From Porogramme epimiltina (Eukaryota; Basidiomycota; Agaricomycetes; Polyporales; Polyporaceae), in the NCBI GenBank assembly GCA_900155495.1, contig FTLJ01000189.1, positions 1 to 64,000 on the forward strand: a stretch of 64,000 bases of DNA, read 5' to 3'. The position numbers and the translations under genes were made by a program. Shown here in pieces: positions 6,958 through 60,073 of the stretch (position 1 is the first letter of the stretch; each line of letters begins with the position of its first letter). Under the pieces are notes generated by a model. That model worked only from the letters and a program-made list of their open reading frames with translations. It searched no databases and was not told the DNA's origin.

Positions 6958-7130
6958 CAGTGCGGCCGTAGCGATAAGAAAATACGAAAGTCCCATAAGC
7001 CCTGCCTGTGCTGCAGGAAATCCCGTGGGAGCACCCATCTGCAGTGACTAACATCTCCGGCGAATTCAATTCACAATGCTACAGATACACAAAACACAAA
7101 GCCAGATCACCGCCTCTTGTTCAACCGCGC
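6958..7130. repeat. FunK1 unit 3' flank, copy B
   Basis: This is the partner of 3550-3740, and the two diverge mainly by point changes. Together they show that a unit of about 3.4 kb (promoter, kinase gene, 3' flank) was duplicated head to tail. Confidence 0.8.
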
Positions 7131-11077: not shown

Positions 11078-12727
<1,650 letters not shown>

Positions 12728-22538: not shown

Positions 22539-22941
22539 TGTGCGAGGTTCTGGGGGTGGCTTGGATAGTAATGTTGGGAATAGAGCGACGTCTTGATGAA
22601 CCAAAGGCTGCAGCTAAGTTGTGAACGATATGTATGCGCTTGAATACAACACACCTGTTTAGATAGTCTGTGAATTCGGAAACCTCGGTCTAGAGAGTGG
22701 GATGTGGTAGAAGAGAAGAGCAGATTTGGAACGAACATGAACCCGCGCGGGTCGTGAAGAACGGGGGAGAAGGTCACATGACAGCCCCCTCGAAGCGAAC
22801 AAGGTGCCTCTTTGGCGAGAAGGTAAAATCAAAGCAAGTGCATCGTGAGTATAGCAGTGTAATAAGTTATACAAGCACAAGTCCATGTAGATAACAGCGA
22901 CAAACTCTCACATCTCTCATACCAGCAGCAACAGGCGGTGA
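22539..22941. other. spacer between the HHCC protein and Rho-GEF genes
   Basis: No gene is supported. It holds the 5' leader of one gene and the 3' region of the other. Confidence 0.4.
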
Positions 22942-39436: not shown

Positions 39437-42017
39437 ATGGCACTACTAGCTGAAAATACGTCACCCGATGTAATTTTCGACTTCCATAGGGCGCGCAGGT
39501 CCACGCCAATGTCGCTCGCTATGCCCCAGTCGTCGCCTTCCCTGCCACCACATCCCGAATTCTCCCCTTTCAACGTCCCACATCTCTGCGCATCCGTCCC
39601 TTACGATCAAGGAGATCTTGCGACGTATCCAGAACGCCATGGTTGGGTTGTCCACCATCAAGACGAGCAGTGCCATGTCTCCTGTCACCCAGGCATCTGC
39701 TACGACGGAGTTGAACCCGATTTTCAATCCCGATCCGACCACTATCAAGCGAACGGCCCAGTATCTCCGATGCTCTCGCGGTTGGACAACTCTGCAGTCA
39801 CCCCGGAGAGCAAAGTCGCGTTCCTGCAGTCTTGGCTCTTCTTCGGGACCCTCTACGAGGTTTCTAGGCTGTGCGGATACCCCATCGACATCGAGACCGA
39901 GTTTCTCGTAGACGACGGGAGAAGAGTCTCGACTTCTGCGTTGAACGGTCTAGCTGGTCGCTGGTTCATGGCACTCAGTGACGACAAGGTCGGGGACAAG
40001 GCCTTCATGGAACGAATCTTGACCATCGCGCGACGGATGGCGCTCCTCCTCTCCGAAGAAGTTGTCAGCAGACCCGAGTGCGACTCCGTGTTCCGCTGCA
40101 CTCCTGCGGAGGCCCGCGTCCTGTTCTCCATCGACATCCTCCTCCGCGTTCTCGCGCTGCACCTTCTCCTGCACATCAACTCCCCGGGATTCGCCTGCTC
40201 TGAAGAAGAGGGTTGGGGCGCGAAGCGGATTAGTAGCGCCGTCGACTGGGTCGGCCGCACCCGGGAGGGCGAGTGGGAGCTCGTCTACCTCGACCCGGAG
40301 ATGGGGGCACGCGGCTGGTGCAGGAGCGAGGCGCGGATGCTGCAAACCGACGGCATGCACCGCTTCGCGGCGATCCTCCGGCGCCCTCTCGCCAGGGACC
40401 ACTCTGGGTGCGGCGACGCTGTGTGCGGCGCATACCAGGTGGATGAGGCCTTCTACAAGCTCGTGCACACGGACTTGTGCTCCCTTGCGACATGCTCCCC
40501 CCAACACATTGGCGTTCGGGCCGAAGATCTGGTGGAGATACTCAAGGAGGACAAAGTGCCTGTGGTGGTAATCGCGGACGACTTGGGGGTCACGGTCGCA
40601 AGTAGCGACGCGTATCCCTATATCGCTCTGTCTCATGTGTGTGAGTTCTTTGAAATCTCTCTCTTGTCATTCTGTGTACTGATAAATATCAGGGGCTGAT
40701 GGGCTAGGGAACCCGAGGCAAAACGCGCTACCCATGTGTCAGCTTCGCCGCCTCCGTGAGTACATCGTGCAACTATCTCAAGCCCATGGGGATCGATTAG
40801 CGCAGGGGGGTACCGTCGCCTTTTGGATGGACACATTGTGCATCCCCGTCGGCCATGGCTTCGGACAGTATCGCAACAAGGCCATCCGTCTCATGTCGAG
40901 AACATTCCGCGAAGCGACCGCCGTCCTAGTGCTCGACAAGGAGCTCGGGGATATCCAGGCATCTACTGCGTCTTTCCTCGAGCTGGGAATCCGGATCTTG
41001 TGCAGTGGATGGATGAAGCGCCTGTGGACGTTAGAAGAGGCGTCGTTCGCTCTCAGTCCAGCCGAAGGCGACCCAGGGCCGACCCAAGGATCTTGGATGG
41101 GGAAGAGGCTCTACTTCCAGCTGCGCGACGGGCCTTTTCATCCGTGGACATATGCAGCCAACCACCGGTCCCGACAGGAAGTGAACGAAGTCCTGATGGA
41201 CGAATACGTTGTCCTAGAACTGCGCCTCCGGATCCCCGTGCTGAAGCAGAACGAGTCATTCTCCGGCAACGACCTGTTTGTCGCGCTCAACCGCCGGTCT
41301 ACGAGCAAGGACGAGGACATCCCTATTTGCGCCGCATCTATCCTCGGCCTGGATGCTTCTTCCGTACTCTCCGCCAGTGACCGGCAGGGTCGGCTTTCGG
41401 CTTTCTACAGGCTTCTGCGCTCGGTTCCCGAGGGCCTTCTGTGGATCCACGATCCGGCCGTGGAGAAACTGGCGATTGCACCCTTCCGCTGGGCACCCAC
41501 GTCCATCACCACCATCCCTGACGACTTCCTTCATATGAGCGCAAAGGACCTAGCCTGTGACGAGCGGGGTTTACATGTGCGCTACGCCGGCTTCATCCTC
41601 GACTCGGAAGTCCTAGAATACGGAACATCCATCCTCGGTGCCTCTGGGTCTGATGAAGCACCAGCGTATGGCTCTATGACATGGTCTCGCTCGGACACTC
41701 CTTCCCCTTCGCTGGATGCACCAATGGAGCATGGAGTTTCGAACGTGCGGCTGGCAATCCTCATCAAGTCGTCGTATCTTGAAGAGTTCGATCCAGAGTT
41801 GCCCAATGCAGCCATTATCCGCATTGAGCGCGAGGAAGTGGCACTCGTGACTGACGTGGCTGGCAACGCGGATACAGAACTACTTGGAACGGTTCACGGT
41901 TACGGGCACTTCGTGGACTCTGAATTACCCGAATTCGCTGATGGCTTGGGCGTGCAAGAAACCCGGGTAGTTCGTTGCACGCGCACTAACGGCGATCAAA
42001 GGTGGTGCATTACATGA
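39437..42017 (+). CDS. HET-domain protein 1
   Basis: It starts at ATG 39437 and has two exons, about 843 residues. The HET domain (roughly residues 389-560) shows YPYIALSHVWADGLGNPRQN, LPMCQLRRLREYI, VAFWMDTLCIP, RNKAIRLMSRTFREATAVLV and CSGWMKRLWTLEEASF. HET domains drive incompatibility cell death in filamentous fungi. The N-terminal half is not a known effector domain that I recognise. It contains WVVHHQDEQCHVSCHPGIC and, before HET, a Cys325-x4-Cys330-x13-His344-x3-Cys348-x4-Cys353 cluster. The HET domain is followed by STSKDEDIPICAASILG and a C-terminal RWCIT. The intron splits the Trp codon of SHVW, as in the three paralogues. Confidence 0.9.
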
Positions 42018-42574
42018 TTGAAAAGGAAACAGTGGAGTTTAAAGATGCATCTGTACTTTACGGATGATGTTTTTTATTCTGATAGTACTAGGTACTATAG
42101 GAGAGACTACAAAGTAGGGATTTGTTACCGATAATCACAAGAGTCTTACACTGAGTCAGTCTCTACGATGTGAGCGAAGCGCTTCTACTTATATTACTGC
42201 ATAGAACGACCCCGTTGTAGTTGGAGGACAACTTGTCAAGATCAACAATAATCCTGATGACGGCCGCGTGATACGCCACGGCCAACGGCGATTAGGTTGG
42301 CGTCTAAGAACGCTGAATGGCTTTCTCCTTACCTCCATCTCCGCTGCCTACTATTTCTCTTCAATACTATTGCCTCGTTTCCGAGCACTTTCAGTTCAGG
42401 GACGTATACGTGGCGTTATATCCCTCGAAGCTTGCACATTCACAATCTGCGGGTGACGACTGCTGCACCAGGGAAGACGTCTGTTATCAGCGATATGCCG
42501 CAGGATGATGGCGCGTACCCGAAGAGCTCTCCATGCCGTTTGAACCCACTATCCGTGTAGCTGCCCTTTCTACA
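42018..42574. other. spacer with a decayed repeat
   Basis: Bases about 42335-42490 are similar to 50105-50270 (shared GCCTCGTTTCCGNGCACT and TTCACAATCTGC). The open frames differ between copies, so it is a decayed duplicated element rather than a gene. Confidence 0.5.
42335..42490. repeat. decayed duplicated element, copy 1
   Basis: Its partner is at 50105-50270. Similarity extends over about 160 bases with small indels. Copy 1 follows HET gene 1 and copy 2 follows FunK1 copy 3. Confidence 0.6.
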
Positions 42575-43015
42575 TCATGGATAGCGCGGTGAGCTTTTAC
42601 AAATTGCCTTCGGTTTCTCAGTGACATTGGTTCTCTTCGCGCTCTCGCCTCTCTTCACTGCAAGCCCCCATTCACCGCCCTCCACCTGGCATTCATCACG
42701 CGCATTGATGATGTGTCCCTTAGAGTCGTATATATGGTGAACAAAACTACTGCCTAGGCGACCGTTGGAGCATCGGAGGAGGTTAGCGGAGATACGGTCG
42801 GAGGAAGTGGTTTTCATTTTCTGGGAGCGTCGTAGTGGCAGCCAACTGAGCTTCGGCATACGGTAGTTGATGTACGTCCCACCCTCCCACTCTTTCCGTT
42901 GATTCACGGTGCCACACTCGATGTTAGGGGGTAATAGATGTCCCCAGTATGAATCTTTCTCGTTGAGCCAGTATGTGGTCGACTTGTGGGTTTTGCAGGT
43001 ATAGCGGGCTGCCAT
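42575..43015 (-). CDS. hypothetical protein, 146 codons
   Basis: An uninterrupted frame with a true ATG (43013-43015) reads MAARYTCKTHKSTTYWLNEK and KSTTYWLNEKDSYWGHLLPP, ending ICKSSPRYP. Composition is protein-like, with no known motif, signal peptide or membrane segment. It could be part of a decayed gene. It lies opposite in strand to the HET array. Confidence 0.3.
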   Translation of the reverse strand: MAARYTCKTHKSTTYWLNEKDSYWGHLLPPNIECGTVNQRKEWEGGTYINYRMPKLSWLPLRRSQKMKTTSSDRISANLLRCSNGRLGSSFVHHIYDSKGHIINARDECQVEGGEWGLAVKRGESAKRTNVTEKPKAICKSSPRYP

Positions 43016-43634
43016 CGCCCTCCTGACACCCGGAGCTCTACTTCAAGCCTCAAGGTTGTCTCTATACAGCAGTATTCGGGCTACACGGGATGGGGGGACC
43101 CCCCGATAATGTCGCGCGAGTTTGAATCGAGGAGAAACTCGAAGGGTGTGGAAAGCATTGATGACGATGGATTCCCGTCTTTCCGCAGGCACCCTTTACT
43201 GCTCTAGGCACTTGTATCACACACTGGCGTGTCACGGTGACAATCGGATCGTCTTTTCAAAACCACAATCTTTGATGCCGTGAACGCCTCGAGGCTGTGC
43301 GAAGCAACATGTTGACACCCCGCGCGTATTGCCAATATCTGCTGGCAATATGGGGTCTTTGCTCTTCAAAAATGTTCGCCTGTTGTCATCGTTGGAGCTC
43401 GCCTCCGTTGTGGATCCGGTTTGCCGTACCCCTGACCATTTCCGGCTCCGAAAATGGGGAACTGTATGAGCAGAGGAGATAAAATGAGGCAGGTAGGTTG
43501 CTTGTACCTCCACATTCCTCGATTTCTATTACTGACATAGTAACTAGTCATCAATTCCCCTCGGTGTTCATCGTAAGGCCATACTCGATGATGACTACTG
43601 GCATGACTTCCACAATTGGCGGCGTTTTGAACCA
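43016..43634. other. spacer upstream of HET gene 2
   Basis: In the 60 bases before the HET2 start the frame is open and reads YWHDFHNWRRFEP, homologous to FDFHRARRSTP in HET1, but it contains no ATG. The true start may lie upstream across an unseen intron. Confidence 0.4.
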
Positions 43635-46215
43635 ATGTCTCTCATTATACCCAAAGTTTCCACCTCGCTTCCTCCTCGACCGGAGTTCCCTGCTTTTACC
43701 GCCCCGTACCTCTGCGCGTCTATGCCGCGGCCTTACGACGGGAAGGACTTCGACACGTATCCACACCGCCACGGATGGATTGTTCACCACCAAGACAAGC
43801 AATGCCACGTCCTATGCCCCCCGGACATCTGCCTCAACAATTTTGCGCCCGAAGACTATTTACGGCGACGTGATCATCACGGGGCTCACCGCTCTGTCGC
43901 TCCGATGTTGTCTCGTGAAGACGGCTTTCCTATCACCGGGGCAAGCAAAGCTGCATTTCTCCAGTCATGGCTCTTCTTCGGGACCATATACGAGGTGTCA
44001 AGAATGTGCGACCTTTCGATCAATGCTCAGGCGGAGTTCCTCGTCGACGAAGGCCGGAATGTCTCTACCACCGCGCTGAACGGTCTTTCTGGGCGCTGGT
44101 TTGCTTCGCTCGACAGCGCAAGGGTGGGAGATAAAGTCTTCATGAAGCGAATCCTCACCATCACCCGGAAAATAGCATTGCCCATGGGCGAAGAGATACA
44201 AGATCGCGAAGGGCGCAAGCCAGTTTTCCAATACACACCTGACGAGGGGCGCGCCCTCACTGCCATCGATATTCTCCTCCGCGAACTCGTGCTGCATCTT
44301 ATGTTGCACATCGCCTCCCCTACCTTCACCTGTACCGAAAGCGACGGCTGGCGATCGGGGCACATCTGGCTTTCCGTCAAGAACGAGTTCGGTCGGGAAG
44401 GGACACGGGACCTCGTCGACGCTGCTGCCGACCTTGAAGCCCGTGGATGGTGCAAGAGCGAAACGGACTTTCTGGAAAGAAGGGACTCCGACTTGTCGCC
44501 CCTCTCCTCTACCCTGGATCGGCCCCGCGCTATGGATCATTCCAACTGCGATGTTCATGAATGCCGTGCATATCAAGTGGTCGAGGAAACCTACAAGACA
44601 GCACACACGGACGGGTGTGACCTCGGCTTACAAAGTTCGTGCAGCTTCGTTCGTGTATCTGCTGACGACTTGGTCGAGATACTCGCTCAAGATCAAGTTC
44701 CCGTGGTGGTCATAACAGAAGATCTTCAAGTCCAAGTCGTGAGTGGTGAGGATCACCCCTATATAGCTTTCTCCCACGTCTGTGAGTCCTTTGAGTTTCA
44801 ATCGTCGACCTTACAACAACGTGGACTGACCTCGTCTACCTTAAGGGGCAGACGGCCTAGGAAACCCCACCGACAACGCGTTGCCAAGATGTCAACTTCG
44901 TCGTCTTCGCGATTACGCTGTTCGCCTCCGTCGTGTTTGTGGGGGTAGACTGTACAACCGCTCTTCCGTCGCCTTTTGGATGGATACGTTGTGCGTTCCC
45001 GTTCATCCCCGACACCGCGATTACCGCATCAAGGCTATACGCCTTATGGCGAAGACATTCCATGAGGCAAGCGCTGTCCTGGTCCTTGACAGGGAGCTCG
45101 AAATCGTCAGCGCCGCAACAACGTCGTTTCTGGAACTGGGCATACGTATTTTATGCAGCGGGTGGACGAAACGAGTGTGGACTTTGGAAGAAGGATCTTT
45201 CTCTCTCGACTTGCTGACGGAAGACGGCCGCTCGATCGAGGTCCGACTGAACGGTTCGGACTCGGAGGAGCACGGGATCCCAGACAGACTCCACTTCCAG
45301 ATGCTCGATGGGCCCTTCTCTCCGTGGCTCGCGTTCGACGCCCGCGGCCCCTTGGAGGAGGTCAGCGAAATATTACTCGACAGCGCTGTGTTTAGCCAGT
45401 TGCTTGTCCGCATCCCACCATTCGCGCATCACGCAGACTCCATGGCTGGCCGCGACGTCCTCGGCGCGCTGAAACACCGGTCAACGAGCAAGGAGGAGGA
45501 CATCCCTCTCTGCGCCGCATCGATACTACGCATGGACATCACCCCCATCCTCTCCGCCCCCGACCAGCATCACCGCCTAGCCGCCTTCTTCCGCCAACTG
45601 CGTGGGATCCCAGAGGGGATCGTATGGATACACGACCCCGCTGTAGAGAAGGTCACCGTCGTGCCCTATCGATGGGCGCCCGCGCGTCTCACCGCAATCC
45701 CGGAGACGTTCTACCTTCAGAGTATGGAGGACCTGTATTCGGATGAGCGAGGGGCCCATGTTCGCTATGCTGGGTTTATCCTCGACTTTGAGTGTGTCGA
45801 GGTGCCGGCCAACCGCACCTTCCACCTCGTCTCGGCGACAACGGGGGAAGTCTTCGGGGTAATCCGGGCAAGCGCTAGCGATTCGCAACACCCGTCTCCC
45901 GACTCGACAGAGTCTGACGCGGGTCCATTGGACGGCATGACTGCTGGGACAAGATTGGCGGTCGTTCTCAAGCCGGATCATATGGTCAATGTCCTACCGA
46001 AAGTTCCCAATGCAGCTATTTTCCGCATCCTTCACAACCCAAGAAGCTCTGCTGAGGCTAGCAGCACGAACAAGGAGATCGTCGGGACGATTATTGGGTA
46101 TATACATTTTGTAAGCTCAGAATCTCCCGAATTCACAGTGGCCTCAGGGCATGGAGAAGTGGTTCAGATTTACTGCACGTCTACGGAAAGGTTTCAAAAG
46201 TGGTGTTTAACGTGA
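43635..46215 (+). CDS. HET-domain protein 2
   Basis: It begins at ATG 43635 (MSLIIPKVSTSLPPRPEFPA); two exons end SAKWCLT-like in KWCLT at TGA 46213-46215. The HET signature is SHVWADGLGNPTDNALPRCQ, with AFWMDTLCVPVHPRHRDY and CSGWTKRVWTLEEGSF. The N-terminal half matches HET1: WIVHHQDKQCHVLCPPDIC, FLQSWLFFGTIYEVSRMC, STTALNGLSGRWFASLDS, then the cluster Cys305-x4-Cys-x13-His-x3-Cys-x7-Cys. The intron splits the Trp codon as in HET1. Homology upstream of the chosen ATG (YWHDFHNWRRFEP) suggests a longer N-terminus. Paralogue of HET1, with no acidic tail insert. Confidence 0.87.
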
Positions 46216-47025
46216 TTGAACTCAAGTTTTCCTCCCATTGCCTGTGTTAAATGTATGTATCACTGTCAAAAACAAGTTCTCCATCTGGTGGTCAGTTCCT
46301 GTGTGAACCGATGATGTCATCACCTGGTGACGAGCATAAGTCTATAGATCGCTTCAGTATGTACCTATGCCCTCGAAGCATCTTATGCGGCGCTGGAAGT
46401 ACGCAGCGAGGCATGTTTGATGATCACCACGTTCAAGGAACAGACGCGAGGTGGAGCCAGAGGAAGCCACCGCGAGAGGTGTATGGATAAACATGTGACT
46501 AGCATATATAAAGAGTCGGAGGCGGGATGGAGGGGCGAATCTATGCATGCGCTCTTGAGTCTTGACCACGATGATGCGGCTTAGCGCAAAGTCGGTGTCG
46601 TTTCTGAGGCCCAGAACTTGAAAGGATGCCAAACTTAGAAGGAGGTGCTAGCCGCGCAATGACAGCACAATGGCATCGACGCACGTCGATCTGGGCCAAT
46701 GCTTCGACGGGCCGCCGGTGGCCGACAGCCGACAACCGAATGAGGAAGATTCTCCGGGGCGCTCACCCTAGCGCCCAAACCTCCCCTCTTGACCACCACC
46801 ACCGCCACTGCCAGCCCCACGTTCTGTGTGCTCGCATCCCATTGTCCCCTTCTCCGAACCCGCTGCACGACAAAAGACTGAAATTTAGTCTCCGTCGGCA
46901 AATTCATTTCCACCCGGTTGACTCATCTTCCTGCTGCTTTGAGAGCTAGTCCCGCGCACGCTCGGGCCTTTGGTTTTCTCTTTGAAGCATACAACGGGCA
47001 GCCCTGTGTATTTCCCTCATCGTCA
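46216..47025. other. spacer and promoter of FunK1 copy 3
   Basis: Bases about 46620-46870 are duplicated at 50500-50755 upstream of FunK1 copy 4, including GAGGAAGATTCTCCGGGGCG in both. No gene is supported. Confidence 0.6.
46620..46870. repeat. duplicated promoter segment, copy 3 side
   Basis: Strongly similar to 50500-50755 over about 250 bases. Shared blocks include TCTGGGCCAATGCTT, GACGGGCCGCCG and CTCGCATCCCATTGT. It shows that the duplication creating FunK1 copies 3 and 4 carried the upstream region along. Confidence 0.8.
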
Positions 47026-47032
47026 TATAAAA
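47026..47032 (+). promoter_or_regulatory. TATA box of FunK1 copy 3
   Basis: TATAAAA in CATATAAAAGTGTGCGCTAC, followed by CTAGGTATG, 44 bases before the start codon. The context is shared with copies 2 and 4. Confidence 0.75.
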
Positions 47033-47076
47033 GTGTGCGCTACTCTAGGTATGCAGTTGTTTTTCCTCCTCGCACC

Positions 47077-49826
47077 ATGGCCGCTCAAACCACCTGGACT
47101 CCCGTCGCGCAGCACGCACAGACCCTGATAGAATCTAGTCTCGCTGTCAACGACGACAAACCTAGGCTTAAAGAATACCGCGCAAGAATTGCTGCAGATA
47201 TGTCTCGGACTCCCGTATTGATCGAGGACTCTGTTGTCCTTGACCATATCCTTGCTCTCCCGCCCGATATACCTCTTCCCGGCCGTTCGACCGAACGCAA
47301 GAAGTCTCCGTTCATTGATCTGAAGGGTGCGAACGACATCAATGAGGCGGACGTTTCAGCTCTCTTCGTACGTGTGATTCTCATGTTTTCGTTCATCTAA
47401 GTCGTTGACCAAACCGTGCCTCACAGCAAAATGCAGTCAACACGAACAAGCTTGCGAAAGACCTCACCTTCCACCTATGCGAAAACCAACCGGATCCGGT
47501 ATCGGTGGACAAGGATGGTCAGAAGATCGACGCAGCCCTGTTTTACGACAAGGACGCTCCAAAGGATGGCCGACCACACTGGGCGGATCAGCTAGTCTCC
47601 GTCGAGTTCAAGCAAGGCAAGGAATCACTCGATCCTTTCGATGACTCCAAGGTCAACCTCGAAACGGACGTGATCACACGAGTGAAGGTCCGCGAGCAAA
47701 TCATCAGTTATGCGGAGCTCGTCTTCCACGTCCAACAGCGCACCTTTCTCCTGATGCTCCTCGTCATGGGACGGAAGGTTCGCGTCATGCGGTGGGATCG
47801 GTCTGGAGTCGTGACCACTCGGCCGATAGACTACGTAGAGGATTGGAAGTTCCTTTGCGAAGTCCTGTCCCGCATCTCCATCTTGGCCGCTCATGCACCC
47901 AGCCGCCTCGGGCTTGACCCTAGTGCGACCCGGATATATCGCAGAGATCCCCGCTGGAAAACGATGGAGTCCGTGGCCAGAGAGCGGGAGTCGGATGTCG
48001 ACGCAACGGAGCGCACTCTGGGCGATGACGAACTCACGGAGCCATTCACATACGCCTACATCCGGACGCTTTTCCGCGAGTCTCTGAAGTACAACTGGCC
48101 TCGGTACGAGCTTGAGGTCCCCGACGATGCGGGTGGCGTACAGCGGTTCCTCGTGTGCTGTCCCGTGTTTCGTCAGAAGGGAATGGCCGGCCGCGGCACG
48201 CGCGGATACGTTGCGTATGATCTCACCACCGAGCGGTTCACGTGGCTGAAAGACGCATGGCGCGCGGACTACGATGGTGTCGAGAGGGAGGGTGACATCC
48301 TTCGGAAGCTCAACTCGAACAAGGAGAAGATCAGAAATGTTCCTACGTTGATCTGCCACGGCGACATCCGCAGCCAAGTGACGGAAACTCCAAACTTCTG
48401 GGAGGACCGACGAAACAAGTTCTCCGTTCCTCCTATCCCCCCGCATCCCAACCCCTCGCCTTCTAAAGTTCCGGGTAGCCCATCATGTAGTCTGAAGCGG
48501 AAACATGAAGGTAACGGGACAGAAGCTACGTTCAATTCCCCTCATCGGCTTCATAGACACTACCGGCTCGTTGTGGAAGAGGTATGTATGCCTCTCCACG
48601 TGTTCACCGACGGCCCGCAGCTCCTGTCTATCATGCAAGACTGTATGACCGGTAAGCATAGGAACATCAGGCCTCTTATCCACGAACCATGTCTTACTTC
48701 GCGTCTCCTCCAGCTCACCGTGATGCGTGGAAGTTTTTGCACCTGATTCACCGTGATGTCAGCGGAGGAAACATCCTCATCTACCCACGAGTTGTTGACA
48801 CGGGAGGCAAGCGAGAGATCGTTTGGGCGGGCATCCTAGGAGATTGGGAGTTGGCGAAAGACACGAGGGTGCTAAAGCAGACACAGCCAGAGCGAACCGT
48901 GAGTGACCTGTGAATGCACAATGATGTTTCATGCTAATCACCACCTCGCTGCGATTTAGGGAACTTGGCAATTCATGTCCGTTGACATGCTCTCGAAGCG
49001 AGCGAAGGTGGTCTGCGTCGCCGACGATCTGGAATCCTTCTTCTATGTAATCGTCTACTACGCAGCTCGGTATCTCAAGTCCAATATCAAAGACGTCGGC
49101 GCGTTCATCGAGGATTTCTTCGACTCGTACGGGATCACCGAGGGGCGGTACTCAGTCGGTCGGGCGAAGGCTAATGCGATGAAGAGCACCGAAGGCATCG
49201 AAGTCACGTCGGACTCTGACTCTTCACTCCTTCAGTTCTCGTCGCCCCTCGACCAGCTCCTGCCAACACTTCGAAAGTGTTTCCATTCGCTCTACAAAGT
49301 CCGCAAGTACGAGTCCCAGAAGCCTCTCTTACCCATCCCACCCCCTGCCAACACCCCATCCGACCCTCCACACACACCTCTCAAACAGCCTGCTCGTACT
49401 CGCTACCTCTTTCACCAGCCCGACATGAAGGCGCTGCAGCAAGCTAAGATGAAGGTGATGGAGGAAGTTGTTCCAATTCCAACCGAGGAAGACCATGACA
49501 GAGCTGCCGATGCTAAGAGTCACGACCATATGCTATCAATGTTGTACTTGCACACAGTGGCCGAATGGCCCCCCGTCAAGAATGAGGGCGACCTCATCCC
49601 AGCGAATTGGAAGTCGAGGCTCGACTTCGGTCCCCACGTCACCCCGTCCAACCAAGCCTCATCGAAGCGACCAAGACCCCCGACGCATTCTGTCATAGGC
49701 GTGTCTCCTGAGGACGAACCCGTGGTCGCGGTGGAGAAGGTCGTGGAGAAGAAGAGGAGGGCCCGCGCGCCGAGGGTGCAACGGCAGGGTGTAAGAAGAA
49801 GTGCGCGCATAGCGAACAAGGCTTGA
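47077..49826 (+). CDS. FunK1-type protein kinase, copy 3
   Basis: It starts at ATG 47077 (MAAQTTWTPVAQHAQTLIES); four exons give about 870 residues. The first exon ends ADVSALF at GTACGT. The N-lobe has MAGRGTRGYVAYDLTTERFT with WLKDAWRADY. The inter-lobe linker carries SLKRKHEG and HRLHRHYRLVVEEVCMPLH. The catalytic loop is LIHRDVSGGNILIYPR and the metal-binding motif GDWELAKD. The C-lobe runs GTWQFMSVDMLSKRAKVVCV, YVIVYYAARYLKSNIKDVGA and ends in the basic tail GVRRSARIANKA. All kinase landmarks are intact. The three introns coincide with those of the minus-strand copies, though the VVEEVCMPLH variant groups it with copy 4. Confidence 0.92.
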
Positions 49827-50104
49827 CATAAGCGATTACCCGGCGGGTCTGTGTTCGCTGAGTAGAGTCTACGTATTTCGTGCTACGTTGTAGATATCGT
49901 ATTGCTGTCGTACTTACGTCGTTTCCACATGTGGAATTCTGAATTGATACTACGCCAATGAGGATAGTGTGTGTGATACGAGCTGCCACAGTACTAGTAC
50001 CGTCTTGAAGTAACAGTCACGTTGCCATCGCCGAACGTGCGCCAGCGCGCGACCCTATCCCACGGCGGCGATGAGAAGTTGGTCTTTACGTGATGAGTTC
50101 CTCC

Positions 50105-50270
50105 TTTCACAAATCCACTCCTACTCCACCACTCGCTCGTCAATGCTGCTGCCTCGTTTCCGGGCACTCTCAGCGCAAGGGCATCATATACACAACGTTT
50201 AATCCTTCGAAGTCACTTGCATCTTCACAATCTGCCAGCGGCAACTGGTACACCAGCGAAGACGTTCGCT
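50105..50270. repeat. decayed duplicated element, copy 2
   Basis: Partner of 42335-42490. The plus strand is open here but the frame is not conserved between the copies. Confidence 0.6.
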
Positions 50271-50499
50271 TTAAGTGCCCTCCAATGCCGCGATTGGACC
50301 CACCGTCTGGGCAGGTGTTGGATGTGGCTCGTAGTCTCATGGTTTTTTCACTGCACTCGGTGTGTTTCGGCCTTCTCCAAAGACGTCGGTGCCCAACTTG
50401 CCCGTAGAATTTCTGCATATGACATGACAGAGCTGCGGCCTCATGGCATGGAGGGGCAAATCTGCGCAGGCCTTCTTGACCACTGCGAGCCAGAACTTG

Positions 50500-50755
50500 A
50501 AAGGGTGCTGAACATGGCAGTAACGGTGCCGCTAGCCGCCGCGTGCCAACACAATGGCATCGGTGGACGTCGGTCTGGGCCAATGCTTTGACGGGCCGCC
50601 GCCAGCCGATAGCCGACAGCCCAATGAGGAAGATTCTCCGGGGCGCCCAGCCTAGCGCCCGAACCTCGACTCTTGACCACCACCCCCGCCACTGCCCACT
50701 CCGTGTCCTGCGTGCTCGCATCCCATTGTTCCTTTGCCCAAGTCCATTGGTGTAG
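50500..50755. repeat. duplicated promoter segment, copy 4 side
   Basis: Partner of 46620-46870, lying 190 bases before the FunK1 copy 4 start. Confidence 0.8.
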
Positions 50756-50893
50756 GGGTGTTGAACCATTAATCTCATCGGCAAATTCATTTCCGCCCGT
50801 CGGACACATCCGTCTGCGTTCAGAGTCGGCGCCACACACGCTCAGGCCCATTGAAGCATCTAACGGGCAGCTCCTCCAGCTTTGCACCCCGCA

Positions 50894-50900
50894 TATAAAA
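50894..50900 (+). promoter_or_regulatory. TATA box of FunK1 copy 4
   Basis: TATAAAA in GCATATAAAACGATTGCTAT, followed by CATAGGTATG, 46 bases before the ATG, matching copies 2 and 3. Confidence 0.75.
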
Positions 50901-50946
50901 CGATTGCTATCATAGGTATGTCCTTGCGCCCAGTTCTCTCGCCATC

Positions 50947-53787
50947 ATGGGTGCCAATGCTGAGACCGCTAGTCCAGTTAACGTCGGAGTGCGGACAGTC
51001 GCAACGTCCGGTCTGGTCCACAAACACGGCACTGTCAAGCTCAAGCAGTGGCGTGCAAAAATCGCTTCGGACATGGCCCACACTCCCGTCCTCATCAAAG
51101 ACTCCGTACTTCTCGACAATATTCTTGCCCTTCCGCCGGGGATCTCCAGCCGCCCAGAGCGCAAGACTTGCCCATTCACCGACTTGGCAGGTGCGAATGA
51201 GATGGAGGAAGCGAATGTGTCTGCTCTCTTCGTGCGTTGTATATCTCTTATGAATCAAGGGTTTCGTTACTAAATCTATCTTTTACAGCAACATGCGGTC
51301 AACACGAAGAGACTTGCTGTCGGTCTCAAGTTCCATCTGTGCGAAAACCATCCCGATCCCGCATCTATTGATGAAGACCGTCAAAAAATCGACGCGGCCC
51401 TCTTTGATAACAAGAGCGCCCCAAAGGACAGTCGACCTCACTGGGCAGATCAGCTAGTCTCCATCGAGTTCAAGCAGGGCAAGGATTCACTCGACCCGTT
51501 CGACGACGACGATCCCAAGCTCGCAGCAGACGCGATCACGCGAAAGGAGGTCCGCGCCCAAATCATCAGCTATGCGGAACTTATCTTCCGCGTCCAACAA
51601 CGCACTTTTCTCCTTATGCTTCTTGTTATGGGACGCAAGCTCCGCGTCATGCGTTGGGACCGGTCGGGGGTGGTGACCACCCGGGCGATCGACTATGTCG
51701 ACGACTGGAAGCTCGTCTGCCAAGTTCTCTCGCGCATCTCCCTCTTAGCGGCCCATGATCCTGAACGTCTCGGATTGGATCCGACCGCGACCCGGATATG
51801 TCCGAAAGATCCTCGGTGGAAGACCATGGATGCGGTCGCTATAGAGCAAGACTCGGATGTCGACGCAACGGAGCGTGTACTCGGCGACGACGAGCTTACT
51901 GAACCCTTCACATACGCGTATATCCGCACGCTTTTCCGCGAATCGCTCAAGGACGGCTGGCCTCGTTATGAGCTCCAAGTTCCCGACCGCCGCGCAGCAG
52001 ACGGCAGACGCCGGTTCCTCGTGTGTTGCCCCACTTTCCGTCAGAGGGGAATGGCGGGCCGTGGAACCCGTGGTTATGCCGCATTCGACCTCACTACTGA
52101 GCGTTTTGTCTGGCTAAAGGACGCTTGGAGATCCGACTACCTCGAGGTCGAGACGGAGGGTGACATCCTTTCCAGGCTCAACAAGAGGAAGATCGACAAC
52201 GTGCCGACATTAGTCTGTCACGGAGATATCGCCGACCAGGTGACGGAAACTCCGAACTTCTGGTACAACCGCCAACTCACGTCCGCCGGTCTCTCTCCAT
52301 CAACCCCACTCCACCGCACCGCTTCATCGTCCGGGCCTCAGACCAGCCAGTGTGCTGGCACAAAACGAAAGCATGAGGATGACCTTGAGTCCGATTGCCC
52401 CCACCGTCTTCACAGACACTACCGGCTCGTCGTCGAAGAAGTGTGCATGCCCCTCCACAAATTCATTAACGGAGAACAGCTCTTGTCCATTGTGCGAGAC
52501 TGTATGTATGGTAAGTATATCTACTGCGTCACCAACAGCGTCGTCTCACCAGAAATATAACTTTAGCTCACTACGACGCCTGGAGGCTCTTGCATCTGCT
52601 ACACCGTGACGTCAGTGGCGGAAACATACTCATCTTCCCAAAGATTGACGTAATCGAGGGCAAACGGGTCCTAATGTGGATTGGTATACTGGCAGACTGG
52701 GAGTTGGCGAAAGACACGAGGGTGCTCAAGAAGAGGCAGCCAGAAAGAACGGTGAGTGGTTCCGTCATTGAAAGTGTCTCGTTTTAAGCTGATGAGCACA
52801 CCTCTGGAAACCTAGGGGACGTGGCAATTCATGTCTGTTGCCATGCTCGCCAGGCGGGCTAAGACGGTCGAGGTTGCCGACGACTTGGAGTCGTTTTTCT
52901 ATGTCATACTCTATTACGCCGCTCGGTACCTCGTATCCAACATCGACGATGTTCCGATTTTCATCGAGAACTTTTTCGACTCGTACGAGTGGATTGGTAG
53001 CGCGTACACCGTCGGCGCAACGAAATACAACACCATCAAAAAGTCAGCGGACATTCAAATATCTTCTGTCGACGAAACGCCCCTCTCCTTTTCTTCTCCT
53101 CTGGACCAAGTCTTATTGGAGCTGCGCGATGCCTTCCACTGTCTGTACATTGTTCGAGAGTACGACTCGCGTAAAACTCTCCGGCCTGTCGTGAAGGACA
53201 ACGCTCCACCCACACCATCCAAAAATCCGTCCCGCATGCTCCGCGGACGTCTCATGGGTCACGCAATTAAAGGCGCGATAAAGAAGACCTTCATCCCCAC
53301 CCAAGACAATCGGGACCGAGCAGCCTGTGCTCAGAACCATGGTTTTTTTTTGTCGCTCTTGGAAACGCACATCAAGGCAAAGTGGCCCCCTATCAAGAAT
53401 AATGGCGATCTCATTCCGTCGGACTGGAAGTCGAGGCGTGATCTCGGACCGAGCGTCACGCCGTCCAACCGGTGCACCTCGAAGCGGCGAAAGCTCCCGT
53501 CGAACTCTGGCGTAGGCGAGGAGCACGAAGAGGAGCTCTTGGTTTTAGCGGAGGAACCAGAGGACCAGCCAGAGGACCAGCCCGTGGAGCAGCCAGAAGA
53601 GCAACCCGTGGGGCAGCTCGTGGATCAGCCTGCCGAACAGCCCGTGGAACAACTCGTGGAGCAGCCCGAAGAGCAGCCCGTGGAGAAGCCCATGGAGAAG
53701 CCCGCGGAGAAGAGGAGCCGCGTTCGGGTGCCAAATGCGCAGCTGGCAGGTGTAAGGAGGAGTGCACGGTTGGCCAACAAAGTCTAA
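50947..53787 (+). CDS. FunK1-type protein kinase, copy 4
   Basis: It starts at ATG 50947 (MGANAETASPVNVGVRTVAT) and has four exons with the family's intron positions. Landmarks are MAGRGTRGYAAFDLTTERFV with WLKDAWRSDY, TKRKHEDD in the linker, HRLHRHYRLVVEEVCMPLHK, LLHRDVSGGNILIFPK, LADWELAKD and TWQFMSVAMLARRAKTVEVA. The tail has a Glu/Gln/Pro/Val repeat absent from the other copies, then GVRRSARLANKV. It is a complete kinase of about 895 residues and the closest relative of copy 3, from which it is separated by 1.1 kb including a duplicated promoter. Confidence 0.92.
53548..53711 (+). repeat. coding minisatellite, EQPV/EQPE type
   Basis: About 12 imperfect units of 12-15 nt, built on GAGCAGCCCGTG, encode EEPEDQPEDQPVEQPEEQPV and onward to VEKPMEKPAEK. 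The reading frame is kept, so unit gain or loss would change the length of the tail only. Confidence 0.85.
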
Positions 53788-54152
53788 TGGGCGAGTGTTG
53801 GGTTTCATGGTTCCAGGGAATGGTCCACTCTTCCATACTGTTCGACTCGTGTTGGTTGTCATATACGATGTTGTAGCGCTTCTGTTCTTCATATCGCACC
53901 ATTCTCCTCTTTCCTCTTTTATGCACTGTTGGATCTGACGAGCCTCCGGCCAGCCCGCGAACGTTGAGATGTGATGTCGGATCACGTGATCATATTTCTG
54001 CCATCAAAACGTCCGCGCTTGCGGTATCGGGGCCCGGGACCGTTTGCCCTCATCCCCTTCCAGCCTGACCACTTCCCTCGTTGCGTACAACTCTGATTGC
54101 TCTCAGACCCCGCTGAACTTAAAACGACAACTCTTATGCTCTCCTGGAATCA
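53788..54152. other. spacer and promoter of HET gene 3
   Basis: It contains the palindromic E-box at 53980-53991. No gene is seen. Confidence 0.5.
53980..53991. promoter_or_regulatory. palindrome with E-box core upstream of HET3
   Basis: GATCACGTGATC is a perfect 12-base palindrome with the CACGTG core recognised by bHLH factors, 161 bases before the HET3 ATG. A second CACGTG sits near 57095 before HET4. Confidence 0.45.
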
Positions 54153-57045
54153 ATGAATATGGGGGATCCTGAAAGCTCCCAAAACCCTGCTCCTAAACAG
54201 GTACTCAATTATCTCGACGAAATCGAGTGCCATGGAGGGGAGTGGCGCAATATCAAGTCCTACCAGATGTGGGCACCCACTCGTCTCACAATGCCCCAGA
54301 CAGACCCCTCTCTTCCACCCCGTCCCGAGTTTCCTCCCTTCATAGTTCCACATCTATGTGCCTCCGCGCCCTTCGATGATGGAGACCTCGCGACGTATCC
54401 GGAGCGCCGTGGTTGGGTGGTCCACTACCAGGACCAACGATGCCACATGTCCTGTCCGCCAGGCATATGTATGGACGGAGTAGAGGCTTCCGCAGATTCC
54501 TGGTGGGATGTTTACAACACCATCCACCCTACGTCCCCGATGCTCTCTCGCGCAGACGGATGTGCGGTCACTGCGGCGAGCAAGGTTGCCTTCTTCCAAT
54601 CGTGGCTTTTCTTCGGAACCCTCCGAGAGATGTCACAGATGTGCGGCTGCCCCACCGACGTTCACTCGGAGTTTGTCGTTCACGACGGGCAAGACGTTTC
54701 AACGGCAGCCTTGAACGGGCTGGCTGGGCGATGGTTCACATCGCTCGACACCGAGAAGGTCAGAGATAAGCTGTTTTTGGAGAGGGTTTTCGTCATCGCT
54801 CGGCGCATCGTGCTCCTCCTCAGGCAAGAACTCTCTAACGACCCTGAGCGCAAACCAGTGTTTCGATACACGCCCGACCAGGTCCGCGTCCTGTTCTCCA
54901 TCGACATCCTGCTCCGCGTCCTCGCGCTCCATCTTCTCTTGCACATCAACTCACCCGCCCTCGCTGATGAAACCATGAGCGCGTGGATGACCGCTCTCCT
55001 ATATACACGCGATATGTGGATTGAAGGCCAAGAAGACCTCGCCAGGTTCACCCCGGAAATAGAGGCTCGTGGCTGGTGCAAAAGCGAGTGCGGGTCACTA
55101 CGAGCGATGCAGTATCCCGACTTGTTCCACTTCATCTCCGTCCTCGATCGTCCTCTGGCTAAAAACCACTCCGCATGTGGTGATGTGATGTGTTCGGCAT
55201 ATCAAGTCGACGAGGCTACCTATGTGACCACCCACATTCCCGCTTGTTCTGACGTGGGATGTTCCCAGGATTTCGTTGGGGTCTCAGCAGAGGATCTGGT
55301 CGAGAGGCTGAAGGAGGATCAAATACCCGTCGTAATAATCACGGATGACTTGCAAATACGAGTTGTGAGTGGTAACAAGCATCCATACATAGCATTATCT
55401 CATGTTTGTGAGTACTATCAGTGTCGAGACCTCTGATTTACGGTGCTGATGATCAGCAGGGGCAGATGGGCTAGGAAATCCCAGACAGAACGCGCTCCCC
55501 AAATGTCAGCTCCGTCGCCTCCGAGACTATACAACCGAGTTATACCGCTTCCGCGGAGGCAAACTGACGAGGAAGACCACGATCGCCTTCTGGATGGATA
55601 CGCTGTGCGTTCCTGTCGACCCGCGGTTCAAAGAATATCGAAACAAAGCCATTCGTCTCATGGCGAGGACATTCCAGGAGGCGACTGCGGTCCTTGTCCT
55701 CGATAAGGAGCTAGAGATGGTCGACACCACAACCAGGTCTGTGGCCGAGCTAGGAGTCCGCGTTCTGTGCAGCGGATGGATGAAGCGACTGTGGACGCTA
55801 GAGGAAGGGACCTTCGCTCTCGATCCGACAGACTACTCGATTATACGTATCCTCGGTGACGCTCCTCCGCCTTCCAAACGCCGACCTCAAGGCCTCCCCT
55901 CATCCGGGTCCTCCGACTCGTTATCCAACTCATCCGACCCTCTAATGGGACCAACAGAGGGACTAAACCGGCTCTACTTCCAGATGGCTGACGGGCCCTG
56001 GATCCCAGACCCTGGGATAGATCTCCCGATCCGCGACGACGTCGATGCCACGCTCCGCACGGAGGCAATGGACATCATGCGCGAGGGCGACGCGTTCTCA
56101 CAGCTCATCTCACGCATCCAGCCCCCCTACATCCAGGTGCACCGCCTCTCCGGCGTGTACGCCTTCAGGGCCCTCATGAACCGGTCGACGAGCAAGGACC
56201 AGGACATCCCTATATGCGCTGCATCGCTTCTCGGCGTGGACCTCACCCCAGTCCTCGCGGCGCGAGATCAGGCGGGGCGCCTCGCCGCGTTCTACCGCCA
56301 GTTGCACTCCTTTCCCGAGGCACTGCTGTGGGCGGAAGACGCAGCCGTCGAGAAGCTACCCGTCGCGCCCTTCCGGTGGGCGCCGGCGCACATCACTGCT
56401 GTACCACAGGAATATATTGGTGGCGAAAGCATGCGCTGCGATGGCAGGGGCGCACATGTCCGCGGCGCAGGGTTCATCCTCGGATTGGAGGCCATGAATC
56501 ATGCCAGCGGGCCGTATTTCCTCGCTTCGCCGAACAAGAGCACTGAGCCCAGTCTATACGGAATGATAGGCGACTTGGTCTGGCAGAACCGTGGCAGCGA
56601 GGGAGACGACAAATATCATGAAGTCTATGAAGGTGGTGAGCATGCGCAAGACGAAGATGTGGAAAGCGAGGCCTCATTTGAGGGAGATGGGGACCGCACG
56701 GGCGAGGGTGACGAACTCGACTCAGATATTGAAGAGGTTGACGAGCTGGAGGATATACCCCGCTTCCCCAGCGCGAGATGGGCGATCATCCTCAAACCGC
56801 GCTACTTGGTCGACAACTCTAGACCCAATTCGGTTAACGCAGCCATCCTCCGTATCGAATCTACCGGATCGTGTCGCGTGGGTGGTGCCCAAGGCAAGGC
56901 AGGCCTCGCCGCTGAGATTTCAGCCACGATCGTAGGGTATGGCCACTTCTTGAGCCCCAAGTCTCCCAGGTTCGATGCCGCCTGTTCATGCGAGCATATT
57001 CCTTGTGTCCGTGTGTCTAGAAGGCAGAGATGGGCCATTACGTAA
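54153..57045 (+). CDS. HET-domain protein 3
   Basis: It starts at ATG 54153 (MNMGDPESSQNPAPKQVLNY); two exons give about 944 residues, ending RQRWAIT. The N-terminal half has WVVHYQDQRCHMSCPPGIC, FFQSWLFFGTLREMSQMC, STAALNGLAGRWFTSLDT and the cluster Cys342-x4-Cys-x13-His-x3-Cys-x4-Cys. The HET domain has SHVWADGLGNPRQNALPKCQ, AFWMDTLCVPVDPRFKEY and CSGWMKRLWTLEEGTF. The post-HET region carries STSKDQDIPICAASLLGVDL and, near the C-terminus, a long acidic tract (EDVESEASFEGDGDRTGEGD onward) that HET1 and HET2 lack. The intron position is the same as in the other HET genes. Confidence 0.9.
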
Positions 57046-57165
57046 CTTCGAAGTCACTTTGCTGCAGCTTTCGGGCGCTAAAGTCTATGGCGTCACGTGT
57101 CGTGTGAGGCGAAATCCAGGCAGAGGCTGCCTCGGCTCTCTATCAATCTCGCTCTCTCCCTCTTA

Positions 57166-60073
57166 ATGTCCTCACGCGACATTCTATGTATGCCATATGC
57201 TACGCTTTCTGCATCTACTACCAGCATGGGTGCCTGCGCCAGTAGAAAGCCGGCTCGCAACGAAGCGCTATCAATGCCCCCTCGTCGCTTCAAGCTCACC
57301 AGTCCCGGTGATATTGACTGGGGCAAGGTCGAATCTTACCAGCGGTGGGCCCCTACTCTCCTCACCATTCCCCAGTCAAATATATCCCTTCCACCTCGAC
57401 CTGAATTCCCTGTGTTCGTCGTTCCGTACCTCTGCGCCTCGAGCCCTTACGACGGAGGCGACTTTGCAACATACCCAGAGCGTCATGGTTGGATAGTCCA
57501 CCACCATGACCCGCTGTGTCACGGTCTGCACTGCCCACCTGGCCTATGCGTCGCTAGTTTGGAAGGCGAAGACCTGGGGGCGAAAGAAGCTCACTACAGA
57601 GCTCATCGTCCTGTTTCCCCCATGCTATCCCGCACGGACGGTTCTCCCGTCACCAGTGCAAGCAAGGCTTCTTTCCTCCAGTCGTGGCTTTTCTTCGGTG
57701 CGCTGCATGAAGTCTCGCGGATGTGTAACTTCCGCATCGACGTCGAGGCCGGATTTGTCGTGGATAACGGGCGACAAGTGTCCACTGCAGCGCTGAATGG
57801 CCTGGCTGCCCGTTGGTTCGCCTCGCTCGACAGCAGATCAGTGGGAAGTACAGTTTTCATGGACCGACTTTTGGCCATCGCACGAAGAATGGTTCTACTT
57901 CTCAACGAAGAGGTCACAGATGAGGGAGAGGATCGTCACCCGGTGTTCAATTACAGACCACACGAAGCCCGCGTTCTGTTTTCTATCACAATCCTCTTCC
58001 GCGTCCTCGCATTGCATTTAGCGCTGCATAACAGCTCTCCTACATCCACTTACACGGAAGATCATGGTCTCGAGGGGTTATGGATCACCGGGCTCCTCAA
58101 CAGGCGTGGAGTCAGGATAGAGGGCATGCAGGACCTCATTTGGAGTGCGGAGCTAGAGGTTGGGATTCGTCAATGGTGCAAGAGCGAGAGATGGTCCCTC
58201 CAGGTGGCAGGTCCCATGGACTTGTTCTGCTTCGTCCCCCCCATCGGGCGACCGCTTCCACGGGACCATAGCGCATGCGAAACAATTTGTAACGCATATC
58301 AGGTCGACGAGTTCATCTACAAGGCTGTTCATACCGAGACGTGCCCTGGCGAGACATGCTCAATGGGATCCGTTCAAGCCTCAGATTTGGTCGAGAGGCT
58401 GGAAAATGGAGAAATACCCGTGATTGTGATCACGGAGGATCTGGAGCTACAAGTTGTGAGCAACGAGGATCATCCTTATATCGCCTTCTCGCATGTTTGT
58501 GAGTGGGTCTACTGAACTCGTTCTAGCATATCGTGCTGACTCCTGGCTATCAATAGGGGCAGATGGAAGAGGAAACCCGAGGCGAAATGCGCTACCTATG
58601 TGTCAGCTCCGCCGTCTCCGCGACTACGTCACTCAAGTCTGCCATGCTCACGGAGGACAACTAGCTGCGACGCCTACCATGGCGTTTTGGATGGACACCC
58701 TTTGTATACCCGTCGACCCGCAGTTCAAGAAGTTTCGAAACCAGGCCATAAGCCTCATGGGGACGACTTTCCAAAAGGCGACCGCCGTCCTGGTACTCGA
58801 TCGAGAGCTGGAGATGGTCAACAGCACAGCGACTTCCTTCTTGGAACTGGTCATCCGAATCCTGTGCAGCGGATGGATGAAGCGACTGTGGACATTGGAG
58901 GAGGCGTCTTTCGCTCTTGTCCCACCGGATGGTGATCACTCAACCGGTGACTCCGGCGCATCTTTCCCACAAAAGAAGCTCTACATCCAGATGCGCGATG
59001 GGCCGTTCAACCCCTGGCAGTACGGACACCGCGCCTACTGGAGCAGTCTACCAACAGAGGCGCTGAGGAACCTGCGGTGGACCGCAGACGACGCGCTCAT
59101 GGACGGGGACGCGCTGATGCATACCATCCTGCGGATCAAGCCGCCAGCGTTCCAGTTCGACGACCTGTCCGGCCGCGACGCCTTCGAAGCGCTGAGCCAC
59201 CGGTCGACGAGCAAGGAGGAGGACATGCCCGTCTGCGCGGCTTCTATCCTTGGCATGGACCTTGCCCCCATACTCTCCGTCCACGACTTACAGGACCGCC
59301 TGGCGGCCTTCTACCGCCAGCTGCGCTCGATACCGGAGGGTGTTCTGTGGGCGGATGACCCTGCCATCAGGAGGTTGACTATCAAGCCCTTCCGATGGGC
59401 CCCTATCAATATCAACACATTCCCTGACGATGCACTGGGTATGGAGGACGTGCGGTGCGACCTGCGGGGCTTGCATGTGAGATATGCCGGCTTCGTGCTA
59501 CGCTCGAGCAGTCTGCCAGGCCGTGGCGTTTATCTCCTGGCTTCGGATCAAAAGGGCAAGACCCGGATACATGGGAGTATAAGGATAATGACGTGGTCAG
59601 AGAAGTGGATGAAGGACGCTGGCGGGGAGGTTACTGATGCGGAGGGCCCAGGCAACCCAAGCGAGGGAGTGGACGACGAGATGGAAGACGAGGCGGAAGA
59701 GAGCGAGGAAGATGAGGACGATAGTGCATGGGAGGAGTCGGAGAGCGATGTGGATGAGGATGAGGAAGCTTATGATGCAACAGCGATGCCCACGACTCCC
59801 GCGATCCCAAGCACCAAGTTCACGTTGGCGATCATCCTGAGGCCCAGTTATCTGGCAGACGTCTATTCCGACTCTTTCAACGCGGCCATCCTCCATACCA
59901 ACTTCGATGGAGATCTTACAGGTGTGCCCCCCAACGTCGAGATCTGCAGCACAATTATCGGGTATGGCTATTATACGCCCTCTCGGCCATCCCAATTCGC
60001 CACAGCCCAAAACGAACATCCTATCCGCATCAGCTGTATGCGCGTGAAAAAACGGAAGTGGCGGATAACATAG
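57166..60073 (+). CDS. HET-domain protein 4
   Basis: Two exons; TAG at 60071-60073 follows KKRKWRIT. Two starts are possible. ATG 57166 gives MSSRDILCMPYATLSASTTS before the conserved part. ATG 57226 gives MGACASRKPARNEALS, an ideal N-myristoylation start with a neighbouring Cys for palmitoylation. The N-terminal half has WIVHHHDPLCHGLHCPPGLC, FLQSWLFFGALHEVSRMC and the cluster Cys-x3-Cys-x13-His-x3-Cys-x4-Cys (Cys371 if the first ATG is used). The HET domain has SHVWADGRGNPRRNALPMCQ (Arg replaces the usual Leu), AFWMDTLCIPVDPQFKKF and CSGWMKRLWTLEEASF. An acidic tract (EEDEDDSAWEESESDVDEDE) precedes the C-terminus, as in HET3. Confidence 0.9.

What the first reader, a model, noticed from the sequence alone, without database searches (positions are those of the whole stretch)
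39437..60073. Palindromic HET-HET-FunK1-FunK1-HET-HET gene array
Six genes on one strand alternate as pairs: two HET-domain proteins, two FunK1 kinases, two HET-domain proteins. Another FunK1 pair lies 29 kb away on the other strand. HET proteins are known triggers of incompatibility cell death, and FunK1 kinases are expanded in mushroom-forming fungi with no known role. Their pairing in one locus suggests a recognition or death pathway with a dedicated kinase. The order and domains are seen; the joint function is inference.
Basis: partly seen in the sequence, partly recalled or inferred. Interest (0 to 1): 0.8.

Follow-up and report, generated by a model that had tools for sequence, protein, structure and literature searches.

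The report
HET gene cluster with carried-along kinases
A bracket-fungus genome holds a growing cluster of self/non-self recognition (HET) genes with fungal-specific kinases lying between them; the two became linked in this lineage and were copied together at least once, but the evidence favours shared ancestry of neighbours over a dedicated HET-kinase pathway.

Summary
The six genes are real: four two-exon HET-family genes and two four-exon FunK1 kinases, all on the + strand, plus a FunK1 pair at 4-10 kb on the other strand. The palindrome is an effect of the window's end: two more HET genes follow at 64.6-70.5 kb. The HET subfamily is a lineage-specific expansion on five contigs; three also hold FunK1. 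The FunK1 pair recurs as a 7.5-kb block (82% identical), and FunK1 3' remnants lie before two other HET genes, so the families were linked and duplicated together. Against a dedicated pathway: 0 of 84 FunK1 loci have a canonical HET gene within 5 kb (capped list); in 4 of 5 species in both homologue lists the families lie on different contigs, in the fifth on one 3.3-Mb contig; adenylosuccinate lyase genes are interleaved with HET genes of the same subfamily. New leads: a PD-(D/E)XK-like motif before the FunK1 kinase domain (fold unconfirmed), and HET/adenylosuccinate-lyase units resembling Neurospora un-24/het-6.

The parts
39437..42017 (+). HET1, exons 39437-40640 and 40693-42017, 842 aa
   Evidence: spliced model; Pfam HET 26.8 bits
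43635..46215 (+). HET2, exons 43635-44781 and 44846-46215, 838 aa (start codon uncertain)
   Evidence: HET 17.7 bits, under cut-off; 54% and 50% identical to HET1 exons 1 and 2
47077..49826 (+). FunA, FunK1 kinase, four exons, 855 aa
   Evidence: Pkinase_fungal 149.2 bits; QKIDAALF, VEFK, WLKDAWR, HRDVSGGN, LGDWE
50947..53787 (+). FunB, FunK1 kinase, four exons, 887 aa
   Evidence: Pkinase_fungal 94.8 bits for exon 2 alone; same motifs
54153..57045 (+). HET3, exons 54153-55407 and 55460-57045, 946 aa; starts 365 bp after FunB
   Evidence: exon 2 HET 17.1 bits, under cut-off; 58% identical to HET1 exon 1
57166..60073 (+). HET4, exons 57166-58498 and 58557-60073, 949 aa
   Evidence: HET 33.4 bits
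42357..42480 (+). Stretch in the HET1-HET2 gap matching the FunA-FunB gap (50136-50265), 74% over 130 bp
   Evidence: E 4e-15; no hits in the reversed-sequence control
46523..53910 (+). Block with both FunK1 genes, duplicated on C271:28727-21277, 82% over 7.5 kb; begins after HET2 and ends before HET3
7107..9744 (-). FunL2, of the second FunK1 pair; D..ExK..Q motif kept (exons listed as open frames)
3803..6306 (-). FunL1, of the second FunK1 pair; nuclease-like motif degenerate, kinase motifs kept
11181..12421 (-). Aldo-keto reductase gene, with DNA relatives near HET and FunK1 genes on C271 and C349
62304..64000 (+). Adenylosuccinate lyase gene (probed pieces; the last runs to contig position 64012), between HET4 and HET5; repeated at 71.9-74.0 kb and before HET genes on C5 and C6

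Best explanation
This is part of a lineage-specific birth-and-death cluster of one HET subfamily in a genome close to Polyporales. Segmental duplication made HET copies in tandem and carried neighbours along: FunK1 kinases, adenylosuccinate lyase, aldo-keto reductase. Some copies then decayed. Shown: open spliced frames, the duplicated FunK1 block, FunK1 remnants upstream of HET genes, excess of synonymous change. Inferred: each HET protein has a Cys/His-rich N-terminal half (perhaps metal-binding) and a TIR-like HET domain that starts cell death when triggered. Inferred: the FunK1 proteins are active intracellular kinases with a nuclease-like N-terminal domain that work in their own pathway. 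On this reading the HET/FunK1 closeness comes from common descent of a linked block, not from a dedicated joint pathway; selection may still have kept immune-type genes together.
For: In the tree of 18 copies of this genome, those of C155, C349, C5, C6 and four of five from C271 form one clade (17 rows, 100/100; fragments on C6 and the divergent C192 gene were left out). C155 and C271 FunA pair together, as do their FunB (100/99 each), with 82% DNA identity over 7.5 kb. A FunB 3' remnant lies between C271 HETb and HETa and a FunA 3' remnant before HETb; the reversed control gave no hits. HETa and HETc, the latter downstream of the whole FunB, are sisters (100/95), so a unit of FunB end plus HET was copied. 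dN/dS between C155 and C271 is 0.14 (FunA) and 0.20 (FunB), and 0.16-0.31 for four HET pairs of C155 or C271, some with dS near or above 1. Adenylosuccinate lyase copies stand before HET5, before 3 of 3 C5 HET genes and before two C6 HET copies, one of them a fragment. Canonical HET genes are not near FunK1. Linkage is not seen in 4 of 5 relatives.
Against: A FunK1 pair kept beside HET genes on two contigs over dS 0.3-0.6, and a second FunK1 type with HET on C349 (12 kb apart), could also mean selection for linkage; the contig-level excess holds without the window's contig (P 0.004). HET function was not tested. The genome-wide counts of adenylosuccinate lyase and aldo-keto reductase could not be obtained (search machine busy), so how special their linkage is remains open.
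Confidence: 0.6

Rival explanations
1. Dedicated HET-FunK1 recognition or death pathway: the FunK1 kinase licenses or executes HET-triggered death, with the nuclease-like domain as a second effector, like a small fungal defence island.
For: Tight same-strand spacing (FunB to HET3 365 bp), recurrence on C271 and C349 and FunK1 remnants before HET genes; open frames and excess synonymous change in both families; a review that proposes fungal defence islands (PMC10197012, passages).
Against: No association for canonical HET genes (0 of 84 within 5 kb); 4 of 5 relatives have the families on different contigs; FunK1 contigs without listed HET hits and HET contigs without listed FunK1 hits in this genome; adenylosuccinate lyase and aldo-keto reductase genes are linked too.
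Confidence: 0.14
2. The functional partner of the HET genes is adenylosuccinate lyase, not FunK1: variant housekeeping enzyme copies guarded by neighbouring HET proteins, as ribonucleotide reductase un-24 works with het-6 in Neurospora.
For: Adenylosuccinate lyase copies before HET5 and before HET genes on C5 and C6, with dN/dS 0.05-0.16 in one exon of six copies; un-24/het-6 precedent (PMC3618301, passages).
Against: Of seven copies found on C155, C5 and C6, three show a stop in a probed piece and one an alignment gap of 7 residues; none was found between HET1 and HET4 or on C271 and C349; the genome-wide count was not obtained; no population data.
Confidence: 0.13
3. C155 and C271 are two haplotypes of one hypervariable incompatibility locus in a collapsed dikaryon assembly.
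For: Collinear FunK1 pair with 82% DNA identity and diverged HET genes around it.
Against: C271 and C155 match only at HET, FunK1 and reductase genes and short stretches beside them; one 7.1-kb control region has no near-identical second copy (best other match 81%); dS 0.3-0.6.
Confidence: 0.05
4. Chance adjacency in a genome very rich in both families.
For: At least 150 HET places (capped list) and about 84 FunK1 loci.
Against: Duplicated block and FunK1 remnants before HET genes; 3 of 80 FunK1 loci on the other four HET-subfamily contigs, 0.33 expected.
Confidence: 0.08

Closest known systems
Tandem HET gene expansions in Polyporales (Ganoderma lucidum, PMC3342255, passages)
   Same: Many HET genes, unevenly spread and clustered on some scaffolds, explained there by tandem duplication; some HET gene models there also bear Aldo_ket_red, a neighbouring family here too.
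   Different: FunK1 and adenylosuccinate lyase interleaved with one HET subfamily are not mentioned in the passages seen.
un-24/het-6 of Neurospora crassa (PMC3618301, passages)
   Same: het-6 tightly linked to a nucleotide-metabolism enzyme gene; het-6 as a HET-domain gene is stated in PMC10197012 (passages).
   Different: There ribonucleotide reductase and proven incompatibility; here adenylosuccinate lyase, several copies, no phenotype known.
FunK1 kinase family (PF17667; PMC3203195, passages)
   Same: Active site HRD-V-S-G-G-N with a serine as described for FunK1; lineage-specific duplications.
   Different: The passages seen do not describe a PD-(D/E)XK-like motif before the kinase, nor HET neighbours.
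Crinkler/CR proteins with REase plus kinase domains (PMC5289972, passages)
   Same: A nuclease-like motif followed by a kinase domain.
   Different: The Crinkler header domain and its motifs were not searched for; the nuclease fold is not confirmed here.
Two-gene death clusters of fungi, gasdermin plus protease, het-S/nwd2 (PMC10197012, passages)
   Same: Neighbouring genes of immune type.
   Different: Those pairings are reported across many genomes; no conserved pairing across species was seen here.

Membership tests
HET domain family (PF06985) | Pfam HET profile over curated cut-off | tested here: met
   HET1 26.8 and HET4 33.4 bits (cut-off 22.5), so 2 of 3 scanned whole; HET2 17.7 is under it; HET3 scanned only as exon 2, 17.1
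HET domain family (PF06985) | Conserved motifs SHVW, W-M-D-T-L-C, R-x-W-T-L-x-E (choice of motifs is mine) | tested here: met
   In 4 of 4 window HET proteins; R, W, T and E of the last motif are invariant in 64 homologues
HET domain family (PF06985) | TIR-like fold | tested here: inconclusive
HET domain family (PF06985) | Triggers incompatibility cell death | not testable with these tools
   Needs expression or knock-out
FunK1 kinase (PF17667) | Pkinase_fungal profile over cut-off | tested here: met
   FunA 149.2 bits; FunB exon 2 94.8; cut-off 24.1
FunK1 kinase (PF17667) | Catalytic Lys, HRD followed by the FunK1 serine, metal-binding Asp | tested here: met
   WLKDAWR, HRDVSGGN, L(A/G)DWE in the four window FunK1 genes; K, H, D, N and D invariant, R 62 and S 63 of 64 in homologues
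FunK1 kinase (PF17667) | Kinase fold | tested here: met
PD-(D/E)XK nuclease superfamily | D..ExK..Q motif in alpha-beta-beta-beta-alpha-beta order (definition recalled) | tested here: met
   D 59, E 61, K 62, Q 61 of 64 homologues, strands and helices in that order in the P0124 model; kept in FunA, FunB, FunL2, lost in FunL1
PD-(D/E)XK nuclease superfamily | Fold or profile match to a known nuclease | tested here: inconclusive
   No PDB profile hit up to E 10, no other Pfam hit; the N-terminal part is hardly tested by the fold searches
Two-gene immune cluster | Pairing conserved across species | tested here: inconclusive
   4 of 5 species on different contigs, 1 on a 3.3-Mb contig; only contig lengths seen, lists cut at 120

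The most novel reading that the evidence does not exclude
The cluster is a fungal analogue of a defence island: HET (TIR-like) death genes co-duplicated with FunK1 proteins that are REase-kinase effectors related in build to Crinklers, and with guarded housekeeping enzymes (adenylosuccinate lyase). The FunK1 family would then be an immune effector family of mushroom-forming fungi.
Probability: 0.12. Interest if true: 0.8.

Novelty: new member of a known kind. Interest (0 to 1): 0.42.

Why it matters
[quoted passage not shown] If the linkage were functional it would give FunK1 a pathway; the evidence mainly shows neighbours duplicated together. The nuclease-like motif in FunK1 and the HET/adenylosuccinate-lyase units are concrete, testable leads.

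Tried and rejected
Mirror duplication: rejected, because the six genes lie on one strand and the HET array continues past the window. Two haplotypes: unlikely (one control region only). HET fold: Foldseek gave no PDB match with E <= 0.001. Nuclease domain by PDB profile and Pfam: nothing; fold lists for the FunK1 model were filled by kinases. HET remnants near FunK1 genes: none found in the HET-masked contigs apart from a 23-residue match on C6 beside a known fragment. Forty further stretches of C155, C271 and C349 were scanned with Pfam; 32 gave no family. Literature: one search listed two papers that hold both FunK1 and heterokaryon incompatibility (PMC5372324, PMC4751544; listing only, not opened); led to PMC10145412, where one passage names both families among those expanded in Pleurotus ostreatus. 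No listing or 83 showed a paper on FunK1 genes linked to HET genes; only the open library was searched. Zhang et al. 2016 on Crinkler domains is not held and is cited only through PMC5289972 (passages); PMC6131194 was seen in passages. The adenylosuccinate lyase and aldo-keto reductase genome counts did not complete.
Full report
What is there. The window is the first 64.0 kb of a 74.9-kb contig (C155) of a 41.9-Mb genome. The six genes are real. Each HET gene has two exons; splicing restores the motif SHVWADG(L/R)GN. FunA and FunB were modelled with four exons. Pfam supports HET1 and HET4 over cut-off, HET2 under it, and FunA strongly.

The palindrome. The contig continues with HET5 and HET6 on the same strand. 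Between HET4 and HET5 lie a ubiquitin-conjugating enzyme gene on the minus strand and an adenylosuccinate lyase gene. The symmetric order is a cut made by the window's end.

Distribution in the genome. The general HET family has at least 150 places (capped), but the window's subfamily is small: six copies on C155, five on C271, one on C349, three on C5, about five whole or partial copies on C6, and one divergent gene on C192. About 84 FunK1 loci lie on 44 contigs. Of the five subfamily contigs (C192 not counted), three carry FunK1.

Ancestry. The FunK1 pair of C155 recurs on C271 with its intergenic DNA (82% over 7.5 kb). In the tree FunA pairs with FunA and FunB with FunB, so the A/B split came first. 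The HET tree puts 17 of 18 copies from this genome in one clade, with the C155 genes unresolved; C271 HETd, whose frame is split, sits with Cubamyces and Trametes maxima genes (91/86). Remnants of FunB and FunA 3' ends lie before C271 HETa and HETb, and a piece like the FunA-FunB gap lies between HET1 and HET2; reversed sequence gave no hits. So a FunK1-then-HET arrangement existed, was duplicated, and partly lost.

Is the linkage special? Canonical HET genes show no excess: 0 of 84 FunK1 loci have one within 5 kb (up to 2.6 expected), 1 within 10 kb (4.3), 3 within 20 kb (7.0). Subfamily contigs hold more FunK1 than expected (7 of 84 against 0.49; 3 of 80 against 0.33 without C155), but descent explains this at least in part. 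Five named species occur in both homologue lists. Cubamyces menziesii, C. lactineus, Cubamyces sp. BRFM 1775 and Fomes have the families on contigs of different length; Daedaleopsis has both on one 3.3-Mb contig. The Fomes HET gene is distant (36% identity); without it the count is 3 of 4. The lists show the best 120 of 218-259 hits. Other families are linked too: adenylosuccinate lyase copies before HET5 and before HET genes of C5 and C6, and aldo-keto reductase genes or their DNA relatives on C155, C271 and C349. Whether these are rarer elsewhere could not be asked.

Selection. FunA and FunB have dN/dS 0.14 and 0.20 between C155 and C271; the other FunK1 pairs tested range from 0.11 to 0.40 and HET exon 1 pairs from 0.16 to 0.53, several with dS near or above 1. 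The adenylosuccinate lyase exon shows 0.05-0.16 among six copies; the copy with a gap was left out. The genes look maintained, though some copies are broken.

Verdict. An ordinary kind of locus, a HET expansion cluster, with an unusual set of neighbours duplicated along with it. A joint HET-FunK1 pathway is possible but not favoured.

Noticed in passing
window 62304-64000 and L001:8249-9952: Adenylosuccinate lyase genes alternate with HET genes here and on C5 and C6, a parallel to un-24/het-6; some copies carry stops.
   Followed up: partly
window 51289-51900, 47427-48035, 9133-9732: PD-(D/E)XK-like motif in the N-terminal part of FunK1 proteins; lost in six of the 12 related copies on C155, C271, C349 and C198.
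   Followed up: partly
window 11181-12421: Aldo-keto reductase gene with DNA relatives beside HET and FunK1 genes on C271 and at four places on C349.
   Followed up: partly
L003:5347-5651 and L003:9639-9752: 3' ends of lost FunK1 genes before HET genes on C271.
   Followed up: yes
window 21015-22613: Integrase zinc-binding domain (H2C2), probably a retroelement remnant.
   Followed up: no
L007:4457-6325: A canonical HET gene (46.3 bits) of another subfamily on C271.
   Followed up: no
whole genome G000: At least 150 Pfam HET places in this assembly (capped list), several contigs with many (for example C522, C616, C431).
   Followed up: no
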